The notes beneath the pieces were generated by a model. That model searched no databases. It was not told the DNA's origin and saw nothing but the letters and a program-made list of their open reading frames with translations. Both the position numbers and the translations under genes were made by a program. 64,000 nucleotides of DNA from a virus: the IMG/VR virus record IMGVR_UViG_3300037011_000606, positions 31,098 to 95,097 of that record. One strand, 5' to 3'. Numbering within the stretch: the first letter of the stretch is position 1; the number at the start of each line of letters is the position of its first letter. Shown piece by piece: positions 43,798 through 50,889 of the stretch.

Positions 43798-43812
43798 CCC
43801 CCCCCCCCCCCC
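43798..43812. repeat. 15-C homopolymer
   Basis: Fifteen C in a row on the + strand (G on the - strand) lie between the late promoter and the cytosine-free region. A frame open from ATG 43864 on the - strand runs through it in phase with the first late gene, and a TATA-like GTATAAAAAT lies just upstream of that ATG. Length changes here would switch such an extended N-terminus on or off. Confidence 0.8.
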
Positions 43813-43902
43813 AGAAAGCTATGAACCTCAAAGATTGGGGGGCGACCTTTCTTTCTATGAGCATCGCGGATTGGGAGCTGGCCGTTATTTTTATACGTGC
43901 CC

Positions 43903-44890
43903 TAATAGTAATTATAATATATATAAATGTTTAATTAAGTATTATTATTTAATTATATGTAGAGAGTATAATTAATATAATATTATAATAATAATAATAT
44001 AGTAATGGGTAATAGATATAATAGAATAGTATATGTAGAGAGGTGTTGTGAGTAGTAATTATATAATAGGTTAGTTATATGATATAGTAGATAGTTGTTA
44101 ATATTATTAGTTTAAGAGAAGAGGTGGTGGTGTTGTTTAGATGGGTTTAGTTGTTGAAGATAGGTTAATGTTATAATGGGTTAGTTGTTAGTATTAATTG
44201 TTTAGAGTAAGAGTTTATAATATATGTTAGTTGTTATAATATAGTAGTGTTGGTAATGTATATAGGTATAGTTGGGTATTTGTATGTTGTAGAGGTTGAA
44301 GAGAATGTTGAGAGTGGTTAGTAGTATGTAGTTATAATTTTTTGAAGTTTGGGATTGGAGATATGATTATAGTTTTTTAAGTATATGATTATAGATTTTT
44401 GGATAGGTAGTTATTGTTATTGGTGGTGGAGGTTATTGTTAAGGGGGAGAGAGAGGAGAGTGTTTGTGAAGTTGGTTATGTATAGTAGATGGGTTTGGAT
44501 GTTTGTTTGGAATTTATTTTTAATATATAAAATTAATTTTTTAATTTAGATAAAAATAATATTATATATTAAAAATAAATTGGTTAAAATAATTAATTAT
44601 TTATTGGTTAAATTTTTTTAATATTTAAATATTTTTATAATTTATTATAAAATTGGTGATTTATAAAAATAATTAAATATTAATATTTGTTAGTTGTAGA
44701 TTGGTTATTGGTGAGTAATAAAAATTTTTGTGAAAATAATTAATTATTTTAAAGGTTAGATGGTTTAATTTGGTAAATGTGTTAGAATTGTTTAGAGTTT
44801 AAAATTGGTTAAATATAGAAAATTATATTGGTGAGAATTGTAGATGGAGTTGGATAAATTTTTATTTTAATTTTATGAAAATAAAAATTT
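43903..44890. other. Repeat-rich, origin-like intergenic region between divergent operons
   Basis: No gene is seen here. Direct repeats include TTAGTTGTT at 44147, 44181 and 44227, ATATGATTATAG at 44361 and 44383 (22-base period), and ATTGGTTA four times in the same direction at 44579, 44603, 44700 and 44804. An 18-bp palindrome AAAATAATTAATTATTTT lies at 44733-44750 and its 16-bp core recurs at 44587-44602. A purine block GGGGGAGAGAGAGGAGAG ends the G-containing part near 44460. Iteron-like repeats, AT-rich DNA and the divergence point all fit a replication origin and promoters of the rightward operon. This is inference. Confidence 0.65.
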
Positions 44891-44901
44891 AGGTGATTGA
44901 T

Positions 44902-45699
44902 ATGTGTATGAATATGAAGGATGGAGAGATGTGTATGAAGGTTGAATGTAATAATGAGATTGTGGATAAGGTAAGAGATTTGATAGTTGGGTTTGAGATT
45001 AGGAAGGATGAAGAAAGGATTGAGATGGATAGGAATAATAATGATAGTTTGAGAATGTGGAAGGAGAAGAGGAAGAATGAGATGTTATTGGTTAAGTATG
45101 GTAAGGTGATTAATGAGGTAAGGAAGAATTTGAGGATTGTTGAAGAGTTGGGGGTTGTTAAGGGGAATGGTTGGGAATTTTGGAAGAATGAGGTGAGTGG
45201 TGGGAGAGAGATTGAGATTGTGAGTTTTGGGAATAAGGTTAAGGAAGTTGTTGAAGGTTATAAGGTGATAGTTGAGAGAAAGAATGTTTGTGAGAATTGT
45301 GGATTGAGTGTATGTAGATTGGATTGGGTGATGGATGAGAAGATGGTTAAGAAGAGTGGAAGAGGATTTGTTGGAAAGATGTTGGTTGGGAATTGTGGGT
45401 TGAAGTGGAATTGTGAGTTGAAGAATGATGAGTTTGGTGTTGATGTTGTTGAGGGTGTATTGGAAGGAGTTTGGAGTGAGGTTATAGATGGAGATAGGAT
45501 GGAAAGGAAAGTTGAGAGTGATTTGAGATATGAGAATTTTGTTAAGGATTGGAATAATGGAGTGTTTTTGAGAAAGTGGAAAGTTAATAAGATGAGAGAG
45601 TTGGATGAGAAGGTAAAGAATAAGGGAAGGTTGATTGTTGAGAGATTGAATAGGATGTTGAATGAGAAGAAGGTAGTTGATGGAGTGGTGATAGAGTGA
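44902..45699 (+). CDS. Cytosine-free gene: 265-residue protein made of 15 amino acids
   Basis: Start chosen at ATG 44902 because AGGTGAT lies four bases upstream (a GTG at 44893 inside that site is the alternative). The coding strand has no C, so only 24 sense codons exist. The protein uses exactly the 15 amino acids they encode and lacks Ala, His, Pro, Gln and Thr. With three of the 27 C-free codons being stops, 265 open codons cannot be chance, so the gene is real and selected. It is rich in Lys, Glu, Val and Asn, and has VCENCGLSVC and NCGLKWNC, which could form a four- or five-cysteine zinc site, flanked by charged helices. No family can be recognised because of the biased composition. 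It may be the first early gene. Confidence 0.9.
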   Translation: MCMNMKDGEMCMKVECNNEIVDKVRDLIVGFEIRKDEERIEMDRNNNDSLRMWKEKRKNEMLLVKYGKVINEVRKNLRIVEELGVVKGNGWEFWKNEVSGGREIEIVSFGNKVKEVVEGYKVIVERKNVCENCGLSVCRLDWVMDEKMVKKSGRGFVGKMLVGNCGLKWNCELKNDEFGVDVVEGVLEGVWSEVIDGDRMERKVESDLRYENFVKDWNNGVFLRKWKVNKMRELDEKVKNKGRLIVERLNRMLNEKKVVDGVVIE

Positions 45700-45786
45700 T
45701 TATATTTTTTAAAGATTTGAGATTTTTGTTTATGTTATTGAGAATGAATGGGTTTGGATTTTGAATGGTTTTTGTTGGTGATGGTG

Positions 45787-45900
45787 ATGGATTGGGATGT
45801 TGTTATGGATAGGATGGTTAAATATAAGGACGTTGATAAGGATATTATAAGGAGATGGGATTTTAAAGTAATGGTTAGAATGTTAGGTGAGGTGATTTGA
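45787..45900 (+). CDS. Possible 37-residue protein in the C-poor region
   Basis: ATG 45787 follows TTGGTGATGGTG and opens 37 codons (MDWDVVMDRMVKYKDVDKDI ... GEVI). Only one C occurs in the gene (45831). It is charged and probably helical. The ribosome site and the purine-rich codon pattern support it, but it is short. Confidence 0.5.
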   Translation: MDWDVVMDRMVKYKDVDKDIIRRWDFKVMVRMLGEVI

Positions 45901-45942
45901 TATGGTAAATTTATGTAAGGAGAATGTTGGAGGTGGTTTAAA

Positions 45943-46083
45943 ATGGTAGAGAATGTTAAGTTGAAGTTTGTAAGGATAGAGGAAAAGGACTTAGTTGAAT
46001 TTGATAGGATAATGGCGATGGATATTGATATTAAGGTGAAGAGGGCGTTTGTGGAATTGGTGAAGGAATTGGTGGAGTTATGA
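45943..46083 (+). CDS. 46-residue helical protein
   Basis: The gene starts at ATG 45943 after GGAGGTGG and ends in TGA that overlaps the next ATG (ATGA at 46080-46083). The sequence MVENVKLKFVRIEEKDLVEFD ... ELVKELVEL suggests two helices with acidic and basic faces. Alanine reappears here, encoded by GCG. Unknown function. Confidence 0.65.
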   Translation: MVENVKLKFVRIEEKDLVEFDRIMAMDIDIKVKRAFVELVKELVEL

Positions 46084-46238
46084 TTATTGATTTAAATGAG
46101 GATGAGATAGTGGATATTATAATGGCGTTAAATATTATGGACGATGGATTTGATAAGATATTCGCTGGAAAGATAATAAAAGAAGATGTTAAAAAGTTGA
46201 AGGAAAAGTTTAGAGATATGTTGGAGAAGGTGATGTAG
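46080..46238 (+). CDS. 52-residue helical protein
   Basis: Coupled to the previous gene by ATGA and to the next by TAG directly followed by ATG. The protein (MIIDLNEDEIVDIIMALNIM ... KEKFRDMLEKVM) is acidic at the start and basic near the end, all helical. It may bind a partner or nucleic acid, but no family is recognised. Confidence 0.7.
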   Translation: MIIDLNEDEIVDIIMALNIMDDGFDKIFAGKIIKEDVKKLKEKFRDMLEKVM

Positions 46239-46433
46239 ATGGACGTAAAGGCAAATGTGGAGCAGTACATGCGTGAGAGGAAATATGAATGTTTTTTCTA
46301 TAAGAAGCTCTGCGCGATACTGAAAGTGAGCTTTGAGGTGATGCTGGAAACGTTGAGGGCTCTTGAGAAGGAAGGAAAGGTGCTGAGATATAAGAGCAAG
46401 AGCGGAGAGGTGAAGTGGTATATAGCGAGGTGA
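46239..46433 (+). CDS. Winged-helix protein
   Basis: This 64-residue protein, YKKLCAILKVSFEVMLETLRALEKEGKVLRYKSKSGEVKWYIAR (split), is a compact winged helix-turn-helix: helix, recognition helix with MLETLRALEKEG, and a beta wing ending in YIAR. It starts right after the previous stop (TAG ATG). It is one of at least eight winged-helix proteins in this arm and is probably a viral transcription regulator. Confidence 0.75.
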   Translation: MDVKANVEQYMRERKYECFFYKKLCAILKVSFEVMLETLRALEKEGKVLRYKSKSGEVKWYIAR

Positions 46434-46437
46434 AAGT

Positions 46438-46650
46438 ATGGTGTCTGAGAAAGATGTGAGAAAGAGAAGGGTAATGAGATGGATGGAAGAGAATGGAGCT
46501 ATGAAAGGAACGGAAGTGGATTATAATAAGGCTATAAGAGTGATCGATGTTGCAAAGGCTCTGAATATGTATCCGGGTGATGTGAGAGATGCGTTGGATG
46601 AGCTGGAAGGTATGGATGAAATAAATAAGGAGACGTTGTATTGGCTGTGA
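46438..46650 (+). CDS. Winged-helix protein
   Basis: This 70-residue protein starts behind GAGGTGAAAGT. After a basic N-terminus (KDVRKRRVMRWMEENGAMKG) it shows AIRVIDVAKALNMYPGDVRDALDELEGMDEI, a winged helix with recognition helix, ending KETLYWL as the wing strand. Likely a DNA-binding regulator. Confidence 0.75.
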   Translation: MVSEKDVRKRRVMRWMEENGAMKGTEVDYNKAIRVIDVAKALNMYPGDVRDALDELEGMDEINKETLYWL

Positions 46651-46659
46651 GGTGATTAT

Positions 46660-46857
46660 ATGGATGTGCATGTTAAGGGAGATGAGGTGATAGCGATGAT
46701 GTCGAAGGAGGAAGCGAACTTCATTGCTGACATTCTTAAGGATGCGGTGAGCGTCTACGAGGATGGGATCAAATTCGGAACGTCTGAGAGAGAGAAGAAA
46801 GAGGCTGTAGATCTGTGCGAGAAGGTGAATGGGATCGCAGTGAAGTTAATGATATAG
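46660..46857 (+). CDS. 65-residue protein, unknown
   Basis: ATG 46660 follows GAGGTGATT. The sequence starts MDVHVKGDEVIAMMSKEEANFIADILKDAV and is helical after a short strand, ending VNGIAVKLMI. The 'L/SKEEA..I..IL' arrangement resembles small helical archaeal-virus proteins, but I do not recognise a family. Confidence 0.7.
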   Translation: MDVHVKGDEVIAMMSKEEANFIADILKDAVSVYEDGIKFGTSEREKKEAVDLCEKVNGIAVKLMI

Positions 46858-46865
46858 GTGATACG

Positions 46866-47282
46866 ATGAAGGTAACATTATACGCGAGCATACAGTGGAA
46901 TCATTGGAAAGAGAGAATGAGGTTTGAGGGAGTAAAGGCGGGAGAGGTGGAGGGGTGGACAGAGGATGGTAAGGTGACTGCAATATTGGTACAACATACA
47001 CCGTTTCCGCTAGGTTCGCTCGAAGATTGGAAGCAATATGTTATTGTGGAATTCGTAAAGGAGCTGAGTGAGATATTCGTCGATTATGATGATGATGTGG
47101 AGGCTATATCCTCGGGTGCTTTAGAAGAGGGCGCTATAACATATGAGAATTTTAAAGGGGATATAGATGAATATTGTTTGTTCGGAGCGTATGTAAAAGA
47201 GATAAGGGCAAATGAGATAGTTACAATTCACATAGGTGCTGAGAAAGATGGAAAGTATTATGTAGATGGTAAGGAGGAATAA
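46866..47282 (+). CDS. 138-residue protein, unknown
   Basis: Start set at ATG 46866 behind AGGTGATAC (an upstream frame overlapping the previous gene is ignored). The protein has strands at the start (MKVTLYASIQWNHW), an acidic helical centre (EFVKELSEIFVDYDDDVEAISSG), and an ending IVTIHIGAEKDGKYYVDGKEE. Unknown family. Confidence 0.7.
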   Translation: MKVTLYASIQWNHWKERMRFEGVKAGEVEGWTEDGKVTAILVQHTPFPLGSLEDWKQYVIVEFVKELSEIFVDYDDDVEAISSGALEEGAITYENFKGDIDEYCLFGAYVKEIRANEIVTIHIGAEKDGKYYVDGKEE

Positions 47283-47284
47283 AT

Positions 47285-47719
47285 ATGAAGTGGATAAATG
47301 GAAAAATAATCTTTGAGTCGGCGAAAGAGGCTGAGAATCTAGCGAACGAAATCGGAAACGCAGCAATCATCGTAGGAGGAATGTTCAACACGATGGTGGA
47401 ACTCGGCGATTGGTGGAAAGGTGAAGGCACTCATACTGCGAAGTATGCAAAAGAGTTAATGGAATATTTGAACAAGTTATCGAAAGGCATATTTGAGATG
47501 TCTGAGGAGATGAGTGAGAAGGCGAAGGGAGAGAAGGCGCATGGAATCGCAAATAAGAAAGCGAGGTATCTGACTGAAGAGGATCTAATAGAGATACTGA
47601 TAGCTGCCAGAGATAGGTGCGAGTTGACAGATGAGAGATGGAAGATGATACTCAAAGAGACGTTTGTGATACATAACTACATAGAGGATCAAGGAAGGAA
47701 GATGTTGTTCAGAAAGTAA
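47285..47719 (+). CDS. 144-residue helical protein, unknown
   Basis: Follows the previous gene by two bases with AAGGAGGAATAA as ribosome site. It is almost wholly helical: SAKEAENLANEIGNAAIIVGG, YAKELMEYLNKLSKGIFEMSEEMSEKAKGEK (split), and a second domain LTEEDLIEILIAARDRCELTDERWKMIL. Not recognised. Confidence 0.7.
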   Translation: MKWINGKIIFESAKEAENLANEIGNAAIIVGGMFNTMVELGDWWKGEGTHTAKYAKELMEYLNKLSKGIFEMSEEMSEKAKGEKAHGIANKKARYLTEEDLIEILIAARDRCELTDERWKMILKETFVIHNYIEDQGRKMLFRK

Positions 47720-47756
47720 GGCCCTAGACCTGACTTGTCAAAAGGATAGTGATGAT

Positions 47757-47891
47757 ATGGTGGATTGCAGGAAGTGCGGAGGAGGTATATGGTACGGGGC
47801 CGTATACGTGAAGAACCAGCATGGAGTGTTCCACCGAGAATGTTACGATAAAGAGGAGTGGAAGAAGAAAAAGAAGAATAGAAGGAGGTAA
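47757..47891 (+). CDS. 44-residue zinc-finger miniprotein
   Basis: MVDCRKCGGGIWYGAVYV followed by FHRECYDKEEWKKKKKNRRR. The CxxC and HxxC pairs about 20 residues apart form a likely zinc site with a strongly basic tail that can bind nucleic acid. The ATG follows GTGATGAT. TAA at 47889-47891 lies in the ribosome site of the next gene. Confidence 0.7.
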   Translation: MVDCRKCGGGIWYGAVYVKNQHGVFHRECYDKEEWKKKKKNRRR

Positions 47892-47896
47892 AAGAA

Positions 47897-48259
47897 ATGC
47901 CAGTATCGTTGAAGGAACTAGAGGAACGAGGAAAGCTGTGTCCTGAAGTAAGGCACTTGGGATTGTTTCAGCACGAGGTGTTGATGGTCCTGAGTACTGG
48001 AGACAACGCGAAGAGAGGGTTCCAGCAAAGGGAACTCGCCGTCGAGTTGACCAGGATACTTCGTGAGAAGAAACGGATCGGGAAGGAGAAGACAATAACT
48101 GAGCAAATGGTCCGCCAGTGTCTCATGAGGTTAGTGGAGAAGGGCCTTGTCGAAAGGTTTGAGATGCCACTTGAACGTGTGGTCAAGGATGGACATGGCA
48201 GCAAGACGAAAAGGGTTTACTATGGTATCTTCTATGCGGTAAGCAAGAAGGTACTATAG
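47897..48259 (+). CDS. Winged-helix regulator, related to two others downstream
   Basis: This 120-residue protein (start after AGGAGGTAAAAGAA) begins MPVSLKELEERGKLC, like the N-termini of the proteins at 49066 and 50946 (xxIxxLEExG). It then has a winged helix with RELAVELTRILREK ... MVRQCLMRLVEKGLVERFEMP and an aromatic wing ending KRVYYGIFYAVSKK. The GC-richer codon use differs from its neighbours and matches those two paralogues. Probable transcription regulator. Confidence 0.8.
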   Translation: MPVSLKELEERGKLCPEVRHLGLFQHEVLMVLSTGDNAKRGFQQRELAVELTRILREKKRIGKEKTITEQMVRQCLMRLVEKGLVERFEMPLERVVKDGHGSKTKRVYYGIFYAVSKKVL

Positions 48260-48274
48260 TTATTTATTTATGGG

Positions 48275-48697
48275 GTGGTGTTGGTGAAGGTAGATGATTG
48301 GGTGTGCTCAGAAGGCAAGATGTACAAAGTCGTCAAAGTGTACGATGGGAAAAATAGGGGTGTGTTGCTGCAGGAGTTTGTACCGAATATCAGTATGCCC
48401 AAGGAGTCGAAGGAAATTCTAAAGAAGACGGGATTCGATAGGATAAATTTCTATAAGGACAGAGCAGAAGTAATAAGAACACTGGAAGAGAATCAGAAAA
48501 AGATGAAGAAGGTTAAAAGGTTAAAGATGACGATTGAAGAGGTTGCTAGTAAGATGAAGAGTCTGTCAGTGGAGGACATGAAGCGAATGGCTGAGTCACT
48601 GGAGAACGCTGACACTGACCTCGGCCGGATGATAGATAGTATGAAGAATATGACGGAAGAGGAAATAGAACAGGTAATGGAGGGGCTGAGAGAATGA
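48275..48697 (+). CDS. 140-residue protein with SH3-like start and helical end
   Basis: GTG start at 48275 (or GTG 48284) behind a TTATTTATTTATGG stretch that may be a promoter. Residues 5-35 look like a small beta barrel (VDDWVCSEGKMYKVVKVYDGKNRGVLLQEFV, split) and residues ~65-140 form a long charged helix pair (KVKRLKMTIEEVASKMKSLS ... EEIEQVMEGLRE). Overlaps the next ATG. Unknown. Confidence 0.65.
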   Translation: MVLVKVDDWVCSEGKMYKVVKVYDGKNRGVLLQEFVPNISMPKESKEILKKTGFDRINFYKDRAEVIRTLEENQKKMKKVKRLKMTIEEVASKMKSLSVEDMKRMAESLENADTDLGRMIDSMKNMTEEEIEQVMEGLRE

Positions 48698-49062
48698 GCG
48701 GAATAATGAAGAAACTGGACTTTGTTGGCCAGACGAAACAGAGTGAGATAATAGTATTGATGGAGAGAGACATTGAGTATGGAGTAATGTACTCGTTGGC
48801 TATTATAAAGGATGCCGAAATGAAGATGAGGAATTCAATGGAGATGGAAAGAGAGATAGAGATGTTAAAGAAGATAGTAAGTGTAATGATAGAAAGAAAA
48901 ATAATGGAAGAGAAAGAGTTAGTAAAGGAATTTGATAATGCAGAGTTGCTGTTCAAAGGATTACATAGACTGTGGTTGGAGGGAATGGTGGAGATGAAAG
49001 AGATAAAGGGAAGAGTTTATTACTTACTCTCAGATGTGTCAGCACGACAGGAGGTGAAATGA
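48694..49062 (+). CDS. Helical protein with winged-helix-like C-terminus
   Basis: 122 residues, starting in an ATGA overlap. The middle is a long charged helix (KDAEMKMRNSMEMEREIEMLKK), and the C-terminal part MEEKELVKEFDNAELLFKGLHRLWLEGMVEMKEIKGRVYYLLSD (split) has the helix-helix-wing pattern with a YYLL wing strand. Likely DNA-binding. Confidence 0.7.
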   Translation: MSGIMKKLDFVGQTKQSEIIVLMERDIEYGVMYSLAIIKDAEMKMRNSMEMEREIEMLKKIVSVMIERKIMEEKELVKEFDNAELLFKGLHRLWLEGMVEMKEIKGRVYYLLSDVSARQEVK

Positions 49063-49065
49063 AAT

Positions 49066-49347
49066 ATGGCGCCGATTGACATAAAACAGCTGGAAGAGGA
49101 GGGCGAAGAGGTCGGAACTGGACCGCGGGAGAACCGTGCGTCTCAGGTCCTGGCATTCCTGAAGAAGAACGCAACTGCGGCATTCACACAGGCTGAAGTC
49201 GCGAAGGCGATCGGAATCGGGAAGACTCACGCAAACCAGGTGCTCAAGACGATGTGCGAGAACAAGCTTGTACACCGCAGGTTGGTCACCGGGGACAACG
49301 GGAGGCAGCTCATCTACTACAGCATTGTCTCGAAGAAGGACAAGTAG
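49066..49347 (+). CDS. Winged-helix regulator, paralogue of the 50946 gene
   Basis: 93 residues: IDIKQLEEEGEEVGTGPRENRASQVLAFLKKN, then AAFTQAEVAKAIGIGKTHANQVLKTMCENKLVHRRLV and the wing RQLIYYSIVSKK (pieces split). The recognition segment IGKTHANQVL is identical in the protein at 50946, with about half of all positions shared overall. GC-rich codons set it apart from neighbours. It is followed by its own terminator. Typical of archaeal wHTH repressors or activators. Confidence 0.85.
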   Translation: MAPIDIKQLEEEGEEVGTGPRENRASQVLAFLKKNATAAFTQAEVAKAIGIGKTHANQVLKTMCENKLVHRRLVTGDNGRQLIYYSIVSKKDK

Positions 49348-49367
49348 ATGAAGAAGGTAGTTAGTGG

Positions 49368-49400
49368 GGGCCGGACATACGGTTCGGTCCTCTTCTTTTA
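49368..49400 (+). terminator. Terminator after the winged-helix gene
   Basis: GGGCCGGAC (49368-49376) pairs with GTTCGGTCC (49382-49390) through seven Watson-Crick and two G-U pairs, with loop ATACG, followed by TCTTCTTTTA. It lies about 20 bases after the stop codon. Confidence 0.7.
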
Positions 49401-49442
49401 ATTTCTTATTTAAGGTCAAAGCGAATATCGAAGGTGGGTTAT

Positions 49443-49622
49443 ATGACGAGTTGGAATTTGAATGAGTATGGGCAGTTATTCATATACAATAAGATGGAAG
49501 ATGAGGTAGAATTAGTCGTAGAGATAGGAATGGATCACTATTATACAATGTCATCGACATACATGCCAAAGAAGTTTATGATGAAGGAGTTAGTATATAC
49601 GGAGAAGGTGGTGATGTTATGA
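49443..49622 (+). CDS. 59-residue protein, unknown
   Basis: ATG 49443 follows AAGGTGGGTTAT. The sequence MTSWNLNEYGQLFIYNKMEDEVELVVEIG then YTMSSTYMPKKFMMKELVYTEKVVML is beta-rich and aromatic. Its end overlaps the next ATG (ATGTTATGA). No family recognised. Confidence 0.65.
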   Translation: MTSWNLNEYGQLFIYNKMEDEVELVVEIGMDHYYTMSSTYMPKKFMMKELVYTEKVVML

Positions 49623-50038
49623 TTAGGAAATATAAGTCTGCGCGGGATAAGATAATAGACTTTCTGGAAAAGAATAAAGAGAGAGCTTACACAGCAAATG
49701 AGGTATCGAAAGCTGTGGGTGTTTCTCGTATACTCGCAAATACTATCTTGAGGAGAATGAAAGAAGGTGGGACTGTAAGAGCAAAACTCCTCAAAACAAA
49801 TAGAACACGCGGAAGGAATTTGATAATATATTACGCTTTTTATTCGTACAGGCAGCGCAATCATGACAAACTGAAAGGTAAATGCTTCATGGTGCGAGAA
49901 GTACTCAGAGAACTTGCCAAAGAACCGAAGTATCTGATGAAGGTACTAAGAGACATGGAGAAGAGGAGAAAGAAGAAAGACAAGTTACTAATGAAGGAGA
50001 TGATAAAGGAGTCGAATCCTCGCCGGAGGAGGAGGTGA
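49619..50038 (+). CDS. Winged-helix protein with basic C-terminal extension
   Basis: 139 residues. KSARDKIIDFLEKNKERAYTANEVSKAVGVSRILANTILRRMKEGGTVRAKLL ... NLIIYYAFYSY is a clear winged helix of the same type as the 49066 protein, here with AVGVSRILANTIL in the recognition helix. Residues ~85-139 form a highly basic, helical tail ending in ESNPRRRRR. A regulator or nucleoid-type binder. Confidence 0.8.
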   Translation: MIRKYKSARDKIIDFLEKNKERAYTANEVSKAVGVSRILANTILRRMKEGGTVRAKLLKTNRTRGRNLIIYYAFYSYRQRNHDKLKGKCFMVREVLRELAKEPKYLMKVLRDMEKRRKKKDKLLMKEMIKESNPRRRRR

Positions 50039-50039
50039 A

Positions 50040-50558
50040 ATGATGAAGGAAGAACTCAAAAGGCGAAAGGAAGAATTCGACAAGATGAAGGAACAACTGA
50101 AAGAGTATGAAGACAAGTACACGGCCGACCTCAGAGAAGAGGAGAAAATCTGGAGGAAGGACTTCGATGCCCGCCGAAAGCAGATATACAGGGCACACCT
50201 CGAGCCGTATAAGTGGACAGCCGCTTATAGGGGAGAGAGGATAAAACAGGTCTTGGTAGTGTGCTTCCAAGATACTGAAGAGTCCCTCAAAGAGATCCAG
50301 GAGTCAATGGACAAGTTCGGTCACTTCATGGGAGAGAGATACGATTCTCCCAGATGTGGAACCTTCGTGGTGTCGGATGGTAAAGTCATTACGATGTTAG
50401 GAGGAGGATGGTCGCTCCTGCGCCCACTCGTAGAGACTTCTTGGCCGAACGAGGACTTCGATGGAGTGGTGAAGAAACACCAGGAACGCATTCTCATGGT
50501 CGAGAAATGGCTGTCGACGAATCCCGCCAACGGGGTGGAAATCATGTGGATTGAGTAA
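50040..50558 (+). CDS. Coiled-coil plus globular domain protein, unknown
   Basis: 172 residues; the ATG follows GGAGGAGGTGAAAT. Residues 1-50 are a coiled coil (MKEELKRRKEEFDKMKEQLKEYEDKY, split). A compact domain then follows with RGERIKQVLVVCFQDTEESLKEIQESMDKFG, CGTFVVSDGKVITMLGGGWS and a final ILMVEKWLSTNPANGVEIMWIE. GC-richer codons than most neighbours. It ends before a T-rich stop signal (GGTCTTTTTTTCTTT). Not recognised. Confidence 0.7.
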   Translation: MMKEELKRRKEEFDKMKEQLKEYEDKYTADLREEEKIWRKDFDARRKQIYRAHLEPYKWTAAYRGERIKQVLVVCFQDTEESLKEIQESMDKFGHFMGERYDSPRCGTFVVSDGKVITMLGGGWSLLRPLVETSWPNEDFDGVVKKHQERILMVEKWLSTNPANGVEIMWIE

Positions 50559-50889
50559 GGTCTTTTTTTCTTTGGGCACCGCATCCAGCCGTCTGCTGCT
50601 TATGAACCCAGGTACGGACGTAGATATTGTAACATCCCGGGGGCCCCTCGTCCCGGGGCCGTTCATCAAGAGCATATTTGTACGGACGTGATTCCGTTGG
50701 GCCGGGCGTCCGGGCATCCCCTCCTGGCCGGGTACAAAACTCCCAGTTCATACCCTTCCTAAGGGACACAGTGCCGTAGAGCCCACTTCAAGAGGTTTGT
50801 GCCTCAAGAGACCTGGACAGGAGTTTCAGGGTCCAGATACGGGAGCAAAGTTCATTAGAGACGGTTCATACGAATAGGTCGTTAAGGAA
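50559..50889. other. GC-rich non-coding block 1
   Basis: No convincing gene. It begins with a T-tract that probably ends the upstream transcript. It holds a direct repeat GTACGGACGT (50612-50621 and 50680-50689), a self-complementary CCCGGGGGCCCC...CCCGGGG region near 50636-50658 able to form a strong hairpin, and the left copy of a 34-bp repeat shared with block 2 (50727-50760). A structured RNA or protein-binding locus is possible. Confidence 0.6.
50727..50760 (+). repeat. 34-bp dispersed repeat, copy 1
   Basis: GCCGGGTACAAAA, five variable bases, AGTTCATAC, then a C(C/T)TTCC ending. The copy at 51274 has the same two blocks at the same 18-base offset. Both lie in non-coding DNA downstream of a T-rich stop signal. 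Confidence 0.7.

What the first reader, a model, noticed from the sequence alone, without database searches (positions are those of the whole stretch)
45831..46260. Graded return of C, mostly as CpG
The first ten C after the C-free tract are at 45831, 45990, 46016, 46046, 46126, 46142, 46163, 46165, 46244 and 46252. Seven are followed by G, although the DNA is AT-rich. This looks like the edge of a process that acts with declining strength and spares CpG, as a deaminase with context preference or protection by CpG methylation would. An alternative is that GCG is simply the last Ala codon kept.
Basis: partly seen in the sequence, partly recalled or inferred. Interest (0 to 1): 0.78.

Follow-up and report, generated by a model that had tools for sequence, protein, structure and literature searches.

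The report
Graded edge of a cytosine-free zone
A 95-kb tailed-virus genome has a 1.9-kb stretch with no C at all on one strand, and at its right end C returns gradually, which looks like the fading edge of a strand-specific C-to-T process; the apparent preference for CpG among the first returning Cs is mostly small-number chance and not evidence of a CpG-sparing enzyme.

Summary
Confirmed: the ten C positions are exact, seven are CpG, and they follow a 1,928-base C-free tract (43903-45830) in a 95-kb tailed-virus genome with terminal repeats. The left edge is sharp to the base (C/(C+T) falls from 0.53 to 0 at 43903). The right edge is truly graded: at synonymous sites and at all pyrimidine sites a gradient beats a single step by 9 to 18 log-likelihood units. 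Not confirmed: CpG sparing. If the same number of Cs is dropped at random on pyrimidine sites, the first ten give 3.8 CpG (7 seen, P 0.03), but by 46400 it is 9.8 expected against 11 seen, and by 47300 42.1 against 43. The CpG share falls outward because the body of the genome avoids CpG, not because the edge spares it. No C5 methylase or cytidine deaminase was found in the virus, and there is no TpG/CpA excess. Best reading: a long-lasting, strand-specific C-to-T pressure on the rightward non-template strand, anchored at about 43.9 kb and fading over about 0.2-2 kb, probably deamination while single-stranded. A gene of about 265 codons lies inside without Ala, Thr, Pro, His or Gln. Enzyme, host and relatives with this region were not found.

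The parts
43903..45830 (+). C-free tract (1,928 bases, 0 C)
   Evidence: with 735 T and 0 C the 95% upper bound on C/(C+T) is 0.4%, against about 31% synonymous C in the distal right arm
43888..43903 (+). Sharp left edge: TTTTTATA at 43888-43895 (archaeal TATA-like, one mismatch), last C at 43902
   Evidence: promoter inferred, not shown
43903..44890 (+). C-free non-coding part (T 0.44, A 0.35, G 0.21)
44511..44752 (.). AT-rich inverted repeats (30-nt arms 93%, 23-nt arms 96%, 19-nt arms 100%), candidate origin or regulatory region
   Evidence: function inferred
44902..45699 (+). C-free gene of about 265 codons (AGGTGA upstream; the listed ORF starts at GTG 44893) with no Ala, Thr, Pro, His or Gln; no family found
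45831..46260 (+). Graded return: the ten Cs of the finding
45831..47300 (+). Full extent of the graded edge (C share recovers; small genes of 46-70 codons, then one of 137)

Best explanation
The ten Cs mark the outer, fading edge of a persistent strand-specific C-to-T pressure on the + strand, which is the coding (non-template) strand of the rightward genes. The pressure is anchored at a fixed point near 43.9 kb, is total for about 1.9 kb, then fades over roughly 0.2-2 kb depending on the model. Most likely cytosines are deaminated while this strand is repeatedly single-stranded (displaced by a transcript or at a replication start), with a fixed left start and a variable right end. Shown: the tract, the sharp and the graded edge, the C-to-T direction, the absence of net CpG sparing. 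Inferred: single-strandedness, deamination, and whether an enzyme (host or an unrecognised viral one) or spontaneous decay does it. The CpG look of the first ten Cs is chance plus base composition and Ala codons.
For: A gradient beats a step by 9-18 log units. Left edge sharp to the base. Non-coding and coding DNA are both C-free, so the force ignores coding. Only C is missing; T is raised (0.44 non-coding; Val+Gly third position T 0.476 against T+C 0.31-0.34). Val 14.9% against 8.6%, as Ala-to-Val by C-to-T would give. The gene of about 265 codons is open although C-to-T turns CAA, CAG and CGA into stops, so the state is long-lasting, not one burst. CpG in the edge equals random placement. 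A TATA-like box lies just before the sharp edge.
Against: No cytidine deaminase domain (PF00383) in the virus. No single-strand or transcript data. GC skew follows gene direction genome-wide (the inverted gene block near record 14-16 kb flips it), so skew is no independent evidence for an origin here. Asn, Lys and Glu also rise in the C-free gene, which C-to-T alone does not give. G-runs, expected for stable RNA:DNA hybrids, are not enriched in the non-coding tract. No relative with this region was found.
Confidence: 0.5

Rival explanations
1. Selection, not mutation, keeps the transcript C-free (equivalently, the template strand G-free): for example so that the first transcript escapes chain terminators of the ddhCTP kind or CTP depletion, or so that the host polymerase meets no modified guanine on the template, since the virus encodes the preQ0 (7-deazaguanine) pathway. 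The need fades after the first gene.
For: The absolute zone covers a leader plus the first gene and ends 131 bases after its stop codon. Viral QueC, QueD (PTPS), QueE-like and FolE2 genes. Amino-acid replacement is accepted at high cost, and Asn/Lys/Glu rise as well as Val.
Against: Four-fold sites went to T beyond the share expected for mere avoidance of C (0.476 against 0.17-0.28 T among A, G and T elsewhere). A DpdA-type inserting enzyme is only a motif-level guess. Nothing is known of the host.
Confidence: 0.2
2. A CpG-sparing deaminase, or CpG methylation that protects C, leaves CpG as the last cytosines.
For: 7 of the first 10 C are CpG; random placement gives 3.8 (P 0.034). At third codon positions the odds ratio for C before G is 1.1-1.8 in the edge against about 0.5-0.6 far out.
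Against: Only 4 of the next 16 Cs are CpG; 43 of 106 against 42.1 expected to 47300. No single edge bin is significant. No C5 methylase in the virus; TpG/CpA not raised.
Confidence: 0.06
3. The gradient is codon and amino-acid constraint alone at the end of a compositionally odd foreign insert.
For: Five of the ten Cs sit in Ala codons. The tract sits between the tail-gene block and the early genes.
Against: The gradient is seen at synonymous third positions (0/116, then 14, 16, 28, 50%). An insert predicts a sharp right edge.
Confidence: 0.1
4. Assembly or sequencing artefact (chimera or chemically converted DNA).
For: No second genome with this region was found.
Against: The record closes with a 125-bp direct terminal repeat, flanks are normal, the C-free DNA holds an open frame of about 265 codons that chance would not give, and the edge is graded across several open small genes.
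Confidence: 0.04

Closest known systems
Mitochondrial DNA strand-displacement deamination gradient (PMC8565317)
   Same: Strand-specific transitions whose intensity changes gradually along the DNA and shape base composition
   Different: There the shift is moderate and genome-wide; here C is completely absent over 1.9 kb, with a sharp start, in a dsDNA tailed virus, and the A-to-G partner signal is absent in the non-coding part
AID-type somatic hypermutation (PMC4703863, abstract only, and general knowledge)
   Same: Transcription-linked, non-template strand, starts near the promoter and decays over 1-2 kb (shape only)
   Different: No such enzyme found here; no hot-spot context shown; total and fixed rather than somatic
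7-deazaguanine DNA modification of phages and haloviruses (PMC6884629)
   Same: The virus encodes FolE2, QueD, QueE-like and QueC, as such viruses do
   Different: Concerns guanine modification, not loss of cytosine; insertion enzyme not confirmed; link to the tract is speculation

Membership tests
CpG-sparing / CpG-methylation-protected deamination | CpG over-represented among surviving C beyond base composition | tested here: not met
   43 against 42.1 expected over the edge; nominal only in the first ten
CpG-sparing / CpG-methylation-protected deamination | C5 cytosine methylase present | tested here: not met
   PF00145 absent from the virus; host unknown
CpG-sparing / CpG-methylation-protected deamination | TpG/CpA excess from methyl-C decay | tested here: not met
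   1.05
AID/APOBEC-type enzymatic deamination | Cytidine deaminase domain in the genome | tested here: not met
   PF00383 absent; motif scan found only one match, on the strand opposite the genes there; host enzyme not testable
AID/APOBEC-type enzymatic deamination | Sequence context preference of the removed C | tested here: inconclusive
   contexts vary between bins and are confounded by codons
Strand-displacement (single-strand) deamination | Loss of C on one strand only with T gain | tested here: met
Strand-displacement (single-strand) deamination | Intensity gradient from a fixed point | tested here: met
Strand-displacement (single-strand) deamination | Partner A-to-G signal | tested here: inconclusive
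   A low at third positions of the C-free gene (AAA:AAG 2:30), but A 0.35 in the non-coding part
Strand-displacement (single-strand) deamination | Single-stranded intermediate | not testable with these tools
   needs strand mapping

The most novel reading that the evidence does not exclude
A dsDNA tailed virus maintains a locus, started at a fixed point and fading downstream, in which every cytosine of one strand is removed generation after generation by a dedicated or host-directed strand-specific process, so that an early gene has evolved to work with 15 amino acids.
Probability: 0.3. Interest if true: 0.88.

Novelty: new variant of a known kind. Interest (0 to 1): 0.6.

Why it matters
Gradual strand-specific C-to-T gradients are known from mitochondria and antibody genes, but complete removal of a base over 1.9 kb, through coding DNA, is far beyond any case I know or found in the paper library. 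The graded edge gives a handle on the mechanism: it allows the rate, direction and context to be measured. It also gives a natural protein of about 265 residues built without Ala, Thr, Pro, His and Gln.

Tried and rejected
Relatives of the tract: the C-free gene, two nearby left-arm proteins and an early protein found nothing in the viral collection. The DNA polymerase and baseplate J protein found short contigs of a sister virus (L004, L005, L065) that do not reach this region. C-free tracts in 398 archaeal genomes: G153 and G361 have many, short and apparently non-coding, but these nearly lack A as well, so they look like a different thing; G359 and G371 gave only simple repeats, and G093 one short tract that was not studied. 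Host by DNA match to 398 genomes: only chance-level hits, none in CRISPR-like arrays. Structure of the C-free protein and of the DpdA candidate: no confident model. Paper searches found no description of cytosine-free virus tracts. GC-skew flip as proof of an origin: rejected, because skew follows gene direction. Thermophile origin of the deamination: IVYWREL 0.398 points to a mesophile (the formula is from general knowledge).

Full report
What was checked. The window is bases 31098-95097 of a 95,097-base virus record that closes with a 125-bp direct terminal repeat. It encodes terminase, portal, baseplate J, Dit-like and minor tail proteins on the left (- strand) arm, and family B DNA polymerase, ribonucleotide reductase, a dUTPase-family protein, FolE2, QueD, a QueE-like radical SAM protein and QueC outside the window. 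It is a tailed dsDNA virus, probably of archaea: by query coverage its polymerase's best matches among phage records are haloarchaeal tailed viruses at 23-24% identity and among genomes archaeal polymerases at 29%. The host is unknown.

The observation. All ten C positions are exact and seven are CpG. The preceding C-free run is 1,928 bases. With 735 T and no C, the C share of pyrimidines is below 0.4% at 95% confidence. Both halves are C-free: about 990 non-coding bases and a gene of about 265 codons that consequently has no Ala, Thr, Pro, His or Gln. In such T-, A- and G-only DNA the chance stop frequency is about one in ten codons, so a frame of this length is a real gene (estimate from the base composition).

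The two edges. On the left, C/(C+T) is 0.41-0.53 up to 43902 and zero from 43903. A TATA-like TTTTTATA lies at 43888-43895; a rightward promoter is inferred. On the right, synonymous C (codons ending in C or T) rises from 0 of 116 to about 14, 16, 28 and 50%. Exponential recovery fits these sites better than one step with the same number of parameters (negative log-likelihood 317.3 against 330.7; a sigmoid gives 321.4). Over all pyrimidine sites recovery with a 0.94-kb constant from 45.78 kb (1001.1), or a sigmoid centred at 46.3 kb with 160-base e-folding (1005.5), both beat a step (1019.4). The graded return is therefore real and is not an amino-acid effect.

CpG. The fair null is to place the same number of Cs at random on the sites that are C or T. 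For 45831-46260 this gives 3.76 CpG against 7 (P 0.034). Extending to 46400: 9.8 against 11. To 46700: 18.8 against 19. To 47300: 42.1 against 43. So CpG is neither spared nor avoided across the edge. Farther out CpG is strongly avoided (103 against 151, 169 against 266), and genome-wide CpG is 0.65 of expectation with no TpG/CpA excess. This is why the CpG share of C declines outward (0.42 for the first 100 C, median 0.19). Cs that return at random, without the usual CpG avoidance, would fit either recent T-to-C back-mutation into formerly C-free DNA, or a removal that shifts the remaining Cs towards composition; the data do not separate these. A residual weak CpG effect is not excluded: third-position odds ratios are 1.1-1.8 in the edge and 0.5-0.6 far out, none of the edge bins significant alone. 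The virus has no PF00145 methylase and no PF00383 deaminase.

Direction. In the C-free gene the third position of Val and Gly codons is T in 47.6%, more than T+C elsewhere (34% distal, 31% nearer), and Val is 14.9% against 8.6%. Both fit C-to-T, including Ala-to-Val. Asn, Lys and Glu also rise, so selection has reshaped the protein. A is low at third positions of this gene (AAA:AAG 2:30 against 68:195 distal) but not in the non-coding part (0.354).

Mechanism. I favour deamination of the + strand while single-stranded, started at a fixed point near 43.9 kb and with a variable right end. Shape precedents are the mitochondrial strand-displacement gradient (PMC8565317) and promoter-anchored antibody hypermutation (general knowledge). 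The AT-rich inverted repeats at 44511-44752 would suit a replication start, but GC skew follows gene direction in this genome, so skew is not independent support. The main rival is selection for a C-free transcript or G-free template; the preQ0 pathway makes a modified-guanine version possible, but the base-inserting enzyme is unconfirmed.

Relatives. No sequence covering this region was found in any other genome, so whether the edge is graded elsewhere remains open. This is the largest gap in the argument.

Noticed in passing
G153 (L042-L060, L035), e.g. G153:C31:10445-10967; G361 (L061-L063): Two archaeal genomes of 398 hold many 120-360-bp, apparently non-coding tracts without C and almost without A on one strand (e.g. 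A 0.01, C 0, G 0.49, T 0.50), the composition that complete C-to-T plus A-to-G conversion of the flanking DNA would give.
   Followed up: partly
window 43801-43815: A run of about 14-15 C lies about 90 bases left of the sharp edge, followed by a run of six G at about 43837.
   Followed up: no
window 44902-45699, codon third positions: A is strongly depleted at third positions of the C-free gene (AAA:AAG 2:30, TTA:TTG 1:17), not in the adjacent C-free non-coding DNA.
   Followed up: partly
L003:7270-12036 and L002:18566-19330: preQ0 (7-deazaguanine) gene set FolE2, QueD, QueE-like, QueC, plus a DNGAYEFG-motif protein that may be a DpdA-type transglycosylase; no profile or fold confirmed the latter.
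   Followed up: partly
window 47300-50560: Synonymous C share overshoots to about 0.5, above the 0.31 of the distal right arm.
   Followed up: no
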